From the NCBI RefSeq assembly GCF_964019385.1, contig NC_088653.1, positions 11,020,269-11,084,268 of the forward strand: a stretch of DNA of 64,000 bases, in the 5' to 3' direction. The translations under genes were made by a program, and so were the position numbers. This stretch comes from Sycon ciliatum (Eukaryota; Porifera; Calcarea; Leucosolenida; Sycettidae). A model generated the notes under the pieces. The model did not search any database and was not told the DNA's origin. It saw nothing but the letters and a program-made list of their open reading frames with translations. Each line of letters begins with the position of its first letter. Positions within the stretch are counted from its first letter, which is position 1. This document shows, piece after piece, positions 11,823 to 15,366 of this stretch.

Positions 11823-11992
11823 TTATTATTATTATTATTATTATTATTTAGGAATGGGTTTGCTCCCACACTGGAGCTCGCGCTATTCCGCCGACGACTT
11901 AACACTTGACTGACTCACGACTGCCATCCAGAGAACACGAGAAGTCCATCGAACCTTCGACTCGGCAAACCTGCAAGAAAGCACCACTCCCT

Positions 11993-12038
11993 GCTCAATA
12001 CACAGTGTTTCGGGGAATTCACCCCTCATCAGTTGAGC
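11993..12038 (-). ncRNA. Hammerhead ribozyme (family A)
   Basis: Same 46-nt sequence and pairing as at 250-295: stem I GCUCAA/UUGAGC, CUGAUGA core, GGGG/CCCC stem II, cleavage position after GUA. Confidence 0.88.
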
Positions 12039-12502
12039 TTGAGTAGGCTGAGGAAGATTGTGCCTGAAGAGCACCACTTATATAGTGCTGTCCAGGCACA
12101 AACATCACCAGGGATACAAACTTACAGAGACACTCCGTTTCCAGCGCGACAAACACAAGTCGTCGGCGGAATAGCGCGAGCTCCAGTGTGGGAGCAAACC
12201 CATTCCTAAACAAAATCATCGCCGAAGTCGCAACCTCTATTTCGTACTGTTGTGCCCAGCGCGGGCGTGCGACTAGGTGGTTTGGAGGTGACAGCGTTGT
12301 GAATGACCGAGGGTCCTCTTCGCCGGTCTGTTCTCACCGTCCAGGAGCGATAACTGACTCACGCTGCTATCTGGTGTTCACGAGGTGTTTGTCGCGCTGG
12401 AAACGGAGTGTCTCTGTAAGTTTGTATCCCTGGTGATGTTTGTGCCTGGACAGCACTATATAAGTGGTGCTCTTCAGGCACAATCTTCCTCAGCCTACTC
12501 AA

Positions 12503-12548
12503 GCTCAACTGATGAGGGGTGAATTCCCCGAAACACTGTGTATTGAGC
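12503..12548 (+). ncRNA. Hammerhead ribozyme (family A), inverted partner
   Basis: Mirror copy of 11993-12038 on the other arm of the palindrome, with identical core and stems. Confidence 0.88.
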
Positions 12549-12726
12549 AGGGAGTGGTGCTTTCTTGCAGGTTTGCCGAGTCGAAGGTTCGATGGACTTC
12601 TCGTGTTCTCTGGATGGCAGTCGTGAGTCAGTCAAGTGTCAAGTCGTCGGCGGAATAGCGCGAGCTCCAGTGTGGGAGCAAACCCATTCCTAAACAAAAT
12701 CATCGCCGAAGTCGCAACCTCTATTT

Positions 12727-13084
12727 CGTATTATTATTATTATTATTATTATTATTATTATTATTATTATTATTATTATTATTATTATTATTATTATTAT
12801 TATTATTATTATTATTATTATTATTATTATTATTATTATTATTATTATTATTATTATTATTATTATTATTATTATTATTATTATTATTATTATTATTATT
12901 ATTATTATTATTATTATTATTATTATTATTATTATTATTATTATTATTATTATTATTATTATTATTATTATTATTATTATTATTATTATTATTATTATTA
13001 TTATTATTATTATTATTATTATTATTATTATTATTATTATTATTATTATTATTATTATTATTATTATTATTATTATTATTATTA
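12727..13084. repeat. (ATT)n microsatellite, about 119 units
   Basis: Uninterrupted ATT triplets over about 358 bp between two foldback elements. All reading frames through it are artefacts of the triplet period. Confidence 0.97.
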
Positions 13085-13229
13085 AGAAAGGGTTTGCTCC
13101 CCACACCGGAGCTCGCGCTATTCCGCCGACTTTACTTGACACTTGACTGACTCACGACTGCCATCCAGAGCACACGAGAAGTCCATCGAACCTTCGACTC
13201 GGCAAACCTGCAAGAAAGCACCACTCCCT

Positions 13230-13275
13230 GCTCAATACACAGTGTTTCGGGGAATTCACCCCTCATCAGTTGAGC
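13230..13275 (-). ncRNA. Hammerhead ribozyme (family A)
   Basis: Identical in core and stems to the copy at 250-295. Confidence 0.88.
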
Positions 13276-13738
13276 TTGAGTAGGCTGAGGAAGATTGTGC
13301 CTGAAGAGCACCACTTATATAGTGCTCTCCAGGTACAAACATCACCAGGGATACAAACTTACAGAGACGCTCCGCTTCCAGCGCGATAAACACCTCGTGA
13401 ACACCAGATAGCAGCGTGAGTCAGTGTCGCGAAGGGAGCAAACCCTTTCTTACAAATCATCGCCGAAGTCGCAACCACTACTTCGTACTGTTGTGCCCAG
13501 CGCGGGCTTGCGACTAGTTGGTTTGGAGGTGACAGCGTTGCGAATGACCGAGGGTCCTCAACGTCTGGTCTCACTGTCCAGGAGCGACACTGACTCACGC
13601 TGCTATCTGGTGTTCACGAGGTGTTTATCGCGCTGGAAGCGGAGCGTCTCTGTAAGTTTGTATCCCTGGTGATGTTTGTACCTGGAGAGCACTATATAAG
13701 TGGTGCTCTTCAGGCACAATCTTCCTCAGCCTACTCAA

Positions 13739-13784
13739 GCTCAACTGATGAGGGGTGAATTCCCCGAAACACTGTGTATTGAGC
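13739..13784 (+). ncRNA. Hammerhead ribozyme (family A), inverted partner
   Basis: Mirror copy of 13230-13275 in the right arm of the same palindrome. Confidence 0.88.
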
Positions 13785-13965
13785 AGGGAGTGGTGCTTTC
13801 TTGCAGGTTTGCCGAGTCGAAGGTTCGATGGACTTCTCGTGTGCTCTGGATGGCAGTCGTGAGTCAGTCAAGTGTCAAGTAAAGTCGGCGGAATAGCGCG
13901 AGCTCCGGTGTGGGGAGCAAACCCTTTCTTACAAATCATCGCCGAAGTCGCAACCACTACTTCGT

Positions 13966-14021
13966 ATTATTATTATTATTATTATTATTATTATTATTAT
14001 TATTATTATTATTATTATTAT
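13966..14021. repeat. (ATT)n microsatellite
   Basis: About 18 ATT triplets separating two foldback elements. Confidence 0.95.
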
Positions 14022-14560
14022 TTGAAACTCGGATGTTGAGCCATAAATAAATGTAAAAAGAGAAAAGGACATATGGATACGAGTTTAGAGTAACTCTCCA
14101 TCACTGTAACATGATACTATATACAGTCAGAAAGTGCAATAACTAGGCACAAAACTGACAGAGTACTGAGACATTCGACGTCCTGACACCTAACTTTAAC
14201 ACATCTCCGTAGCGCTAACCGACAGCCTTCCAACTTGGAAGGTTCAAGGTTATGGAAAGACCAAAGAGGGGAAGGCAAGCACAACGAAAACGAGCAAAAG
14301 CTACAGTCCCAACGGAACAAAGAATGTCGATTGTTACTGGACGATGACGAGACCAGTACGATATTTGACAAAGCGGTCTAACTACAATTCGAAGCAGCAA
14401 AGCAGCACACCACCCAACTTGGGTGGGTCATAAATATCAAAGATAAGTAAAGAAAGGGAAGCTTTGCAAAAACGAATTGTACAAGCCGAAAGCCAAACTC
14501 CTACAGTACTCCTCATGCATGACATTGTGATGGACTAGTTGACTACAAAACAAGTTGTTT

Positions 14561-14609
14561 CACACGACGTACGTTTCGCCGTATGGTTCGTGACGGCTCA
14601 TCAGGTGTG
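14561..14609 (-). ncRNA. Hammerhead ribozyme (family B)
   Basis: Minus strand: stem I CACAC/GUGUG; CUGAUGA; stem II GCCGU/ACGGC; GAA; stem III ACG/CGU with a UA loop; cleavage position after GUC. This is the minimal stem III form typical of Penelope-associated hammerheads. Confidence 0.9.
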
Positions 14610-14810
14610 CAATTTGAAACTCGGATGTTGAGCCATAAATAAATGTAAAAAGAATGTCTCAGTACTCTGTCAGTTTTGTGCCTAGTTATTGCACTTTCTG
14701 ACTGTATATAGTATCATGTTACAGTGATGGAGAGTTACTCTAAACTCGTATCCATATGTCCTTTTCTCTTTTTACATTTATTTATGGCTCAACATCCGAG
14801 TTTCAAATTG

Positions 14811-14859
14811 CACACCTGATGAGCCGTCACGAACCATACGGCGAAACGTACGTCGTGTG
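14811..14859 (+). ncRNA. Hammerhead ribozyme (family B), inverted partner
   Basis: Exact mirror of 14561-14609 on the opposite arm. Confidence 0.9.
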
Positions 14860-15366
14860 AAACAACTTGTTTTGTAGTCAACTAGTCCATCACAATGTCA
14901 TGCATGAGGAGTACTGTAGGAGTTTGGCTTTCGGCTTGTACAATTCGTTTTTGCAAAGCTTCCCTTTCTTTACTTATCTTTGATATTTATGACCCACCCA
15001 AGTTGGGTGGTGTGCTGCTTTGCTGCTTCGAATTGTAGTTAGACCGCTTTGTCAAATATCGTACTGGTCTCGTCATCGTCCAGTAACAATCGACATTCTT
15101 TGTTCCGTTGGGACTGTAGCTTTTGCTCGTTTTCGTTGTGCTTGCCTTCCCCTCTTTGGTCTTTCCATAACCTTGAACCTTCCAAGTTGGAAGGCTGTCG
15201 GTTAGCGCTACGGAGATGTGTTAAAGTTAGGTGTCAGGACGTCGAATGTCTCAGTACTCTGTCAGTTTTGTGCCTAGTTATTGCACTTTCTGACTGTATA
15301 TAGTATCATGTTACAGTGATGGAGAGTTACTCTAAACTCGTATCCATATGTCCTTTTCTCTTTTTA

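What the first reader, a model, noticed from the sequence alone, without database searches (positions are those of the whole stretch)
11850..15366. Foldback elements carrying two opposed hammerhead ribozymes, embedded in (ATT)n
Three successive elements are long palindromes, each with one canonical-core hammerhead in each arm on opposite strands. A transcript of either strand would contain one active-sense ribozyme and the antisense of the other. Hammerheads are known in Penelope-like elements and in retrozymes, usually as direct repeats. A family organised as inverted pairs between triplet microsatellites is not one I know of. The arms are nearly identical, so the structure is young or maintained.
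Basis: partly seen in the sequence, partly recalled or inferred. Interest (0 to 1): 0.87.

Follow-up and report, generated by a model that had tools for sequence, protein, structure and literature searches.

The report
Two-sided Penelope-type insertions carrying hammerhead ribozymes
The palindromes are real insertions of Penelope-type mobile elements, in which both ends of one DNA break were copied from a ribozyme-carrying RNA; the architecture is known, but this genome shows unusually clearly how it is made.

Summary
Window elements 11849-12729, 13084-13965 and 14023-15368 are foldbacks between (ATT)n tracts. Each has one complete hammerhead core per arm; the arms match at 307/308, 347/347 and 602/602 bases. 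They belong to two unrelated families, and are three of eight foldbacks among nine inserts between ten (ATT)n tracts (11547-26288).

The architecture is not new: it is the insertion anatomy of Penelope-like elements (PLEs), with head-to-head copies, ATT targets and a ~30-nt "tail" on one arm only. Neighbouring foldbacks carry both ends of a PLE reading frame, and the same genome holds a PLE with weak-to-moderate reverse transcriptase and GIY-YIG matches.

In the fetched copies of family B, 38 of 38 foldbacks whose outer ends both lie at initiation sites have one end at site 1 and the other at site 2. Two more have an end at neither. Arms run up to 6.4 near-identical tandem units. Best reading: one staggered break, both 3' ends prime on one (probably circular) RNA, and the cDNA heads are joined. 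No RNA or activity data exist, and the enzyme moving families A and B is not identified.

The parts
11574..11821 (.). Foldback A1 (family A, short, no hammerhead); left arm ends at site RT1, right arm carries the 35-nt tail (RT2)
11849..12729 (.). Foldback A2 (family A, unit 484 nt): minus copy 308 nt, plus copy 574 nt = 1.19 units, 1-nt overlap at the inner junction; tail 37 nt on the plus copy
11993..12038 (-). Type I hammerhead motif of A2, left arm
12503..12548 (+). Type I hammerhead motif of A2, right arm; predicted cut GUA|UUGAGC
12693..12729 (+). Tail of A2 (between RT1 and RT2), predicted hairpin with AC-rich loop
13084..13965 (.). Foldback A3 (unit 479 nt): minus copy 347 nt, plus copy 532 nt, 3-nt filler; tail 35 nt on the plus copy
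13230..13275 (-). Hammerhead motif of A3, left arm
13739..13784 (+). Hammerhead motif of A3, right arm
14023..15368 (.). Foldback B1 (family B, unit 592 nt): minus copy 631 nt with 29-nt tail, plus copy 717 nt without tail, 2-nt overlap at the inner junction
14561..14609 (-). Hammerhead motif of B1, left arm (Rfam 26.8 bits, below the curated score)
14811..14859 (+). Hammerhead motif of B1, right arm (Rfam 26.8 bits, below the curated score); predicted cut GUC|GUGUG
23196..23727 (.). Foldback C: truncated PLE copy; minus arm with 34-nt tail; two hammerheads 23303-23342(-), 23615-23654(+)
23514..23726 (-). Frame whose end is the PLE C-terminus (QLKVLEAVCIRTHKPDLCKQKEHVLALRLFS*)
23836..24820 (.). 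Foldback D: truncated PLE copy; minus arm with 26-nt tail; one hammerhead 24635-24672(+)
23997..24419 (+). Frame with PLE C-terminus (QLSVLEAVCQRIHKPDLCVQKDSIIRLKLF*)
24926..25597 (.). Foldback E: truncated PLE copy; minus arm with 28-nt tail; degenerate hammerheads 25497-25532(+), 25019-25054(-) with C3U and G8A (3-8 pair kept)
25154..25288 (+). Frame with PLE C-terminus (QLKVLEAVYIRIRDPNLCKQKENVTALTLFQ*)
25766..26093 (.). Foldback B2 (family B, short, no hammerhead); tail 27 nt on the plus copy
11547..26288 (+). Compound (ATT)n target: ten tracts of at least 4 units separating nine inserts, eight of them foldbacks
105..602 (-). Solo family-A copy A0 (not a foldback), 3' end at RT1 within 1 nt, hammerhead 250-295(-), flanked by a 14-bp target-site duplication at 91-104 and 603-616

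Best explanation
Each foldback is one insertion made by Penelope-type machinery. The element endonuclease makes a staggered cut in AT-rich DNA, here (ATT)n, leaving two 3' ends. Both 3' ends prime reverse transcription, on one hammerhead-bearing RNA, at two start sites about 26-37 nt apart: one strand uses site 1, the other site 2. The two cDNAs grow toward each other, and their heads are joined with little or no shared sequence, giving head-to-head copies with a tail on one arm only. For families A and B the template is a short RNA with no reading frame. B arms contain up to 6.4 whole units, which is most simply a circular RNA (made by the hammerhead) copied for several turns. Families C, D and E are truncated copies of PLEs; A and B are non-autonomous units with the same scars. 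Shown by sequence: head-to-head order, one-sided tails, ATT and AT-rich targets, target duplications, multi-unit near-identical arms, and a PLE with an RT match in the genome. Inferred: circular template, single RNA per insertion, and that a PLE protein acts in trans on A and B.
For: (a) All 8 of 8 window foldbacks have exactly one tailed arm, tails 26-37 nt. For family B in the genome, 38 of 38 foldbacks with both outer ends at the start sites (2 in the window, 36 fetched) have one end at RT1 and one at RT2; one pair of these looks like a duplicated locus. A small family-A foldback outside the window (L017; L018 looks like its duplicate) also has one end of each kind and an 11-bp target duplication. 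(b) A published PLE protein cuts both strands with a preference for ATT, extends both, and starts at two adjacent internal RNA sites that bound the genomic tail. (c) In C, D and E, RT1 lies 10.0, 12.7 and 12.7 codons and RT2 21.3, 21.3 and 22.0 codons into the frame; rotifer Pen2a has 12 and 22. (d) L112 in the same genome has a 742-aa frame holding MSLQLVLLIAILKLLSPRRIF at its start, with an RVT_1 match (E 4.1e-5), a hammerhead upstream, and an inverted pLTR with its own hammerhead; pieces of the nearby copy L113 match RVT_1 (E 1.1e-6) and GIY-YIG (E 0.02). D is 91% identical to L112 over 169 nt. (e) Target duplications of about 8-13 bp, read by eye, flank B foldbacks outside pure ATT: L052, L053, L063, L064, L070. 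(f) Units within one element differ by 0.625 nt on average against 1.96 in label permutations, 0 of 2000 as low (41 units, L062 left out); opposite arms had 0 differences in 6 of 6 unit pairs, from three elements.
Against: Two B foldbacks (L060; C10:24.49 Mb) have one arm whose outer end is at neither start site, and L061 is one-directional. RVT_1 in L112 (23.8 bits) and L113 (29.0) is below Pfam's cut-off (29.6), GIY-YIG in L113 is weak (15.6 against 22.6), and the L112 piece that should hold it has no match. A and B have no blastn match to the PLE loci L112, L113 and L021, so their helper is unidentified. Near-identical tandem units could also come from homogenisation or unequal crossing-over. 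The published PLE used unprocessed RNA in vitro, and its authors saw no reads at the hammerhead cut. No transcript data were available here.
Confidence: 0.85

Rival explanations
1. Snap-back: one cDNA was primed, then folded on itself and copied itself, giving the inverted arm (self-priming was proposed for rotifer Penelope elements).
For: PMC3846280 Discussion proposes self-priming on an antisense template. Identical arms are expected. Inner junctions with up to 12 nt overlap occur. L060 and C10:24.49, with one arm ending off-site, would fit.
Against: Self-copying would carry the second arm into the flank and give inverted flanks; the window's flanks are direct ATT. The second arm ends at a start site in 38 of 38 B foldbacks with both ends at such sites, and the solo copy A0 ends at RT1 with its own target duplication.
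Confidence: 0.07
2. A LINE-type enzyme made these by twin priming on the RNA.
For: Twin priming also gives inverted halves (recalled); LINE frames with RVT_1 and endonuclease matches lie in the window.
Against: The two fixed internal start sites and the one-sided tail are the PLE signature; neighbouring foldbacks carry PLE frame ends. No LINE-like 3' tail was noticed at the ends listed.
Confidence: 0.03
3. Foldback or MITE-like DNA transposons with terminal inverted repeats.
For: Long inverted repeats; a flanking (ATT)n could be a target.
Against: The two ends are not equivalent (one-sided tail), inner junctions vary freely, arms contain tandem units, and single-direction copies exist.
Confidence: 0.02
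4. Sequencing or assembly artefact (foldback reads).
For: Perfect palindromes are typical of such artefacts (recalled).
Against: Direct rather than inverted flanks, one-sided tails, different inner junctions, target duplications, and recurrence at 36 further fetched B foldbacks.
Confidence: 0.02

Closest known systems
Canonical Penelope-like elements with GIY-YIG endonuclease (Penelope/Poseidon type; rotifer Pen2a, Anolis PAc)
   Same: Head-to-head inverted copies, optional tail of about 30 nt on one of them, start sites about 12 and 22 codons into the frame (C, D, E), ATT / simple AT-rich targets, hammerhead in the pLTR, short target duplications.
   Different: A and B are short units (479-484 and 592 nt) without a reading frame; B insertions are often multi-unit foldbacks; many insertions share one compound (ATT)n tract.
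Metazoan non-LTR retrozymes (Cervera and de la Pena 2020)
   Same: Non-coding units with type I hammerheads, tandem units; PLEs were proposed in print as their movers (PMC7229834, PMC7761336; passages).
   Different: Units longer than the ~170-400 nt reported; A is 53.1% GC, above the <50% reported; organised as head-to-head pairs with PLE-type tails. 'inverted' occurs 0 times in PMC7229834's main text. Circular RNA not tested.
Tandem ~226-bp hammerhead repeats of this same genome (L002-L004, L019)
   Same: Type I hammerheads in short tandem units.
   Different: Other sequence; direct tandem arrays; no (ATT)n tract of 5 or more units in those four loci.

Membership tests
Penelope-like elements (for C, D, E) | Single ORF with PLE-type RT and GIY-YIG endonuclease | tested here: inconclusive
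   C, D, E keep only the N- and C-terminal ends of the frame; Pfam has no relevant match for the C and D fragments (E not scanned). The same ends occur on a 742-aa frame with RVT_1 E 4.1e-5 (L112) and, in L113/L021, GIY-YIG E 0.02 and the same C-terminus; all these Pfam scores are below the curated cut-offs.
Penelope-like elements (for C, D, E) | Two RT start sites bounding a ~30-nt tail near the start of the ORF | tested here: met
   RT1 at 10.0/12.7/12.7 codons, RT2 at 21.3/21.3/22.0 codons, tails 34/26/28 nt, against 12 and 22 aa in Pen2a.
Penelope-like elements (for C, D, E) | Inverted pLTR copies, tail on one | tested here: met
   3 of 3.
Penelope-like elements (for C, D, E) | Minimal type I hammerhead in the pLTR | tested here: met
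   C two, D one by descriptor; E degenerate with C3U/G8A. Not reported by Rfam.
Penelope-like elements (for A, B) | RT/endonuclease ORF | tested here: not met
   Longest stop-to-stop frame 116 aa in A and 86 aa in B; no blastn match to the PLE loci. They are therefore not filed as PLEs, only as units with PLE-type insertion scars.
Penelope-like elements (for A, B) | PLE-type insertion anatomy (head-to-head, one-sided tail, ATT targets, TSD) | tested here: met
   A 3 of 3 in the window plus L017/L018; B 38 of 38 with both ends at start sites, plus two exceptions. TSD for A0 14 bp and for five B loci by eye.
Metazoan retrozymes | Non-coding unit with type I hammerhead | tested here: met
   Motif intact in 5 of 5 A copies of the window that span it and exact in 49 of 53 full B units; Rfam scores below cut-off or absent.
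Metazoan retrozymes | Unit size ~170-400 nt, GC below 50% | tested here: not met
   A 484 nt, GC 53.1%; B 592 nt, GC 42.7%.
Metazoan retrozymes | Expressed as circular RNA | not testable with these tools
   No RNA data.
Metazoan retrozymes | Highly self-paired unit RNA | tested here: inconclusive
   Circular fold z -2.9 (A) and -2.3 (B) against 60 Markov shuffles each.

The most novel reading that the evidence does not exclude
Short non-coding hammerhead circles (retrozyme-like RNAs) are moved by Penelope machinery, reverse-transcribed for several turns from both 3' ends of one staggered ATT break, with the two start sites always shared out, one per target strand. The two start sites would then exist because one enzyme dimer on one RNA uses one site for each strand, which explains the long-known one-sided tail.
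Probability: 0.5. Interest if true: 0.75.

Novelty: new variant of a known kind. Interest (0 to 1): 0.6.

Why it matters
What moves animal retrozymes, and why PLE copies are inverted with a tail on one side only, are open questions in the papers read. This genome has many recent, nearly identical insertions of a 592-nt non-coding unit, so both can be tested directly. The rule of one start site per strand is a specific, falsifiable statement about how a PLE enzyme engages its RNA. Arms of several near-identical units suggest copying of a circular RNA, which would give the hammerhead a role in transposition.

Tried and rejected
Rejected: that the foldback layout is a new family type (known PLE anatomy). 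An early idea that arms stop just after one turn (window copies that exceed a unit reach only 1.04-1.21 units) was dropped when the genome showed arms of up to 6.4 units. cDNA ends set by hammerhead cleavage: of 34 inner ends in 17 foldbacks, none is at the cut (unit position 49) and most are spread over the unit, but three lie at 43-47, more than the roughly one expected, so a weak effect is not excluded (four values of 1 come partly from how the last blast piece was chosen).

Led nowhere: exact DNA pattern in viral contigs, 0 hits; PLE C-terminus in viral and genome contigs, 27 and 30 pattern matches, none confirmed; PDB sequence search of the D fragment, 0, and of the L112 frame, only weak group II intron-like RT matches, E 0.11. 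Three papers looked up by id were not held (the id was recalled), so Cervera 2014 and Lunse 2017 were seen only as references. Genome-wide search with the family-A unit did not complete, so for A the start-site rule rests on the window plus L017/L018. The B sample is the listed, top-scoring part of 260 matches, hence biased to long, young copies.
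Full report
What is there. Between 11547 and 26288 there are ten (ATT)n tracts of four or more units, all ATT on the + strand. They separate nine inserts. Eight are foldbacks: A1 11574-11821, A2 11849-12729, A3 13084-13965, B1 14023-15368, C 23196-23727, D 23836-24820, E 24926-25597, B2 25766-26093. The ninth is a 281-bp tandem array with a tRNA-like sequence. The finding covers A2, A3 and B1.

Hammerheads. A2, A3 and B1 each have one complete type I hammerhead core per arm, on opposite strands. 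A structural descriptor gives 12 matches in the window: five in family A, two in B1, two in C, one in D, and two elsewhere. It gives none in 600 first-order Markov shuffles of the window. Rfam is less generous. It reports B1's two motifs at 26.8 bits, E 0.0017, below its cut-off of 34. It does not report the A motif even at E 10 in a 101-base search, nor C, D or E. One other window motif, 36109-36152, passes the cut-off. The A motif folds with a long stem I interrupted by an internal loop, at -24.1 kcal/mol, like canonical type I forms (that likeness is recalled). E carries a degenerate pair in which C3U and G8A change together, keeping the 3-8 pair.

Anatomy. Compared without gaps from the outer ends inwards, the arms of the eight foldbacks match at 1907 of 1908 positions in total (for A1 the comparison stops at a 12-nt duplication in one arm). 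In all eight, one arm ends at a point here called RT1, and the other continues 26-37 nt further to RT2 (each boundary is uncertain by a few bases because of the ATT flank). The tail lies on the + copy in four and on the - copy in four. The two copies are head-to-head and both outer ends touch ATT read on the same strand. A foldback sequencing artefact, or self-copying into the flank, would instead give ATT on one side and AAT on the other. Inner junctions differ: overlap 1 nt in A2, filler 3 nt in A3, overlap 2 nt in B1. A hairpin is predicted within the tail in seven of the eight (not E; only -0.2 kcal/mol in C), with AC-rich loops in several; support is modest.

Solo copy. Family A also occurs once in the window as a plain single-direction insertion (105-602, minus strand). 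Its 3' end is at RT1 within 1 nt, and it has an exact 14-bp target-site duplication. RT1 is therefore a real initiation point, not a by-product of the palindrome.

Link to Penelope-like elements. C, D and E each carry both ends of a reading frame. The C-termini share QL.VLEAV..R...P.LC.QK.....L.LF. The N-termini are MSAAFILFIAIIKLLSPRRLF, MSVQLVLLIAILKLLSPRRLF and MSAHLVIFIALLRLLSPRRLF; third codon positions differ most often in all three pairs. RT1 falls 10.0, 12.7 and 12.7 codons, and RT2 21.3, 21.3 and 22.0 codons, into the frame. [quoted passage not shown] In the same genome, L112 has a 742-aa stop-to-stop frame holding MSLQLVLLIAILKLLSPRRIF at its start, with an RVT_1 match (E 4.1e-5, 23.8 bits, under the 29.6 cut-off), a hammerhead upstream and an inverted pLTR carrying its own hammerhead. 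The neighbouring L113 copy gives RVT_1 E 1.1e-6 (29.0 bits) and GIY-YIG E 0.02 (15.6 bits, cut-off 22.6); the corresponding later piece of L112 has no Pfam match. L021, between them, carries the same C-terminus on both strands. D matches L112 at 91% over 169 nt, and C and E match it in short stretches. I take C, D and E to be truncated PLE insertions.

Published mechanism. PMC11167929 (parts 1-2 of 4 and passages) reports that the Anolis PLE protein cuts both strands with a preference for ATT, extends both strands, and starts at two adjacent internal RNA sites corresponding to the genomic tail. It reports no apparent difference in start site between top and bottom strands, and no need for hammerhead cleavage in vitro. 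PMC3846280 describes head-to-head inverted repeats as the most frequent arrangement, and explains them by self-priming on an antisense template.

Genome-wide test with family B. The 592-nt B unit has 260 matches; those listed are 97-100% identical except one at 82%. I grouped the listed matches by hand into 38 clusters, including the window, and fetched from all 37 others: 20 whole, apart from the largest, and 17 at their two ends, with extra pieces for incomplete ones and for the largest, the C13 compound. Of the 20, 17 simple foldbacks all have one end at RT1 and one at RT2. L060 is a foldback with one arm end at neither site. L061 is one-directional. L062 with its ends L106 and L107 contains three foldbacks, all with one end of each kind, though the middle of the first was not fetched. 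Of the 17 read at the ends, 16 have one end of each kind, two of them probably a duplicated locus, and one (C10:24.49 Mb) has an end at neither site. With B1 and B2 that is 38 of 38 foldbacks whose two outer ends both lie at start sites, and two that do not qualify. An end was counted as RT1 at unit positions 553-574 and as RT2 from 588. If the sites were chosen independently, one of each would be expected in at most half.

Family A outside the window. The hammerhead search happened to fetch L017 and L018, which look like duplicates. Each holds a small family-A foldback with the left end at RT1 and the right end at RT2; in L017 it is framed by an 11-bp target duplication. A genome search with the A unit did not complete.

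Target duplications. Five B foldbacks outside pure ATT (L052, L053, L063, L064, L070) have flanking repeats of about 8-13 bp, read by eye from the printed flanks. A foldback framed by one target duplication is one event at one staggered break with two 3' ends. This supports two-sided priming over self-priming.

Template. B arms reach 6.37 units in simple foldbacks (L057), and a longer array occurs in L062. Inner cDNA ends are mostly spread over the unit; none of 34 is at the hammerhead cut (position 49), though three lie at 43-47. Full units within one element differ by 0.625 nt on average; permuting element labels gives 1.96, with 0 of 2000 permutations as low (41 units, L062 left out). Opposite-arm units were identical in 6 of 6 pairs from three elements. 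The hammerhead is exact in 49 of 53 full units. A linear multimer with working hammerheads would cut itself, so copying a circle several times is the simplest template, but homogenised arrays and inactive ribozymes are not excluded.

Reading. Families A and B have no reading frame and are not PLEs, but bear the PLE insertion scar. Published work proposed PLEs as likely movers of animal retrozymes (PMC7229834, passages and one section; PMC7761336, passages). These insertions are physical evidence for that kind of link. The specific helper is not identified: A and B have no blastn match to the PLE loci found. The literature searches behind 'not seen in print' for hammerhead units with PLE-type tails, and for the one-site-per-strand rule, are, in an open-access library only; besides the papers named, passages of PMC12910113 and PMC11722881 were read.

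Noticed in passing
window 15399-23182: 281-bp tandem array, 27.7 copies, each with a tRNA-like sequence (CTA anticodon by ARAGORN in the five copies tested), fills one gap of the compound (ATT)n tract.
   Followed up: partly
window 36109-36152 (+): Hammerhead_1 above Rfam's cut-off (35.4 bits), 3' of broken LINE-like frames.
   Followed up: partly
window 4053-4099 (-): Another complete hammerhead-type descriptor match of unknown context.
   Followed up: partly
window 1863-2097 (-) and 7260-7494 (-): Diverged (about 70%) family-B relics; the first ends exactly at RT1, the second lies next to an (AAT)5 tract.
   Followed up: partly
L002, L003, L004, L019: Tandem ~226-bp repeats with type I hammerheads (retrozyme-like) elsewhere in the same genome; RF00163 gives 21 places at E<=0.001, four above the cut-off.
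   Followed up: partly
L062:8282-9091: About 810 bp of other sequence interrupts a long B array.
   Followed up: no
L017:845-939 and the same place in L018: Tiny family-A foldback, one arm being little more than the tail, with an 11-bp target duplication in L017.
   Followed up: partly
L082:95-157: A D-type PLE N-terminus ending at RT2 next to ATT, beside a B foldback.
   Followed up: no
window 49955-53535 and 30370-32600: Large minisatellites: 12-bp unit x 298 and 47-bp unit x 48.
   Followed up: no
window 53563-55443 (-), 38155-39387 (-), 62350-63999 (+): hAT-type transposase frame (dimerisation domain match) and LINE-like frames with reverse transcriptase and, in the last, endonuclease matches.
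   Followed up: no
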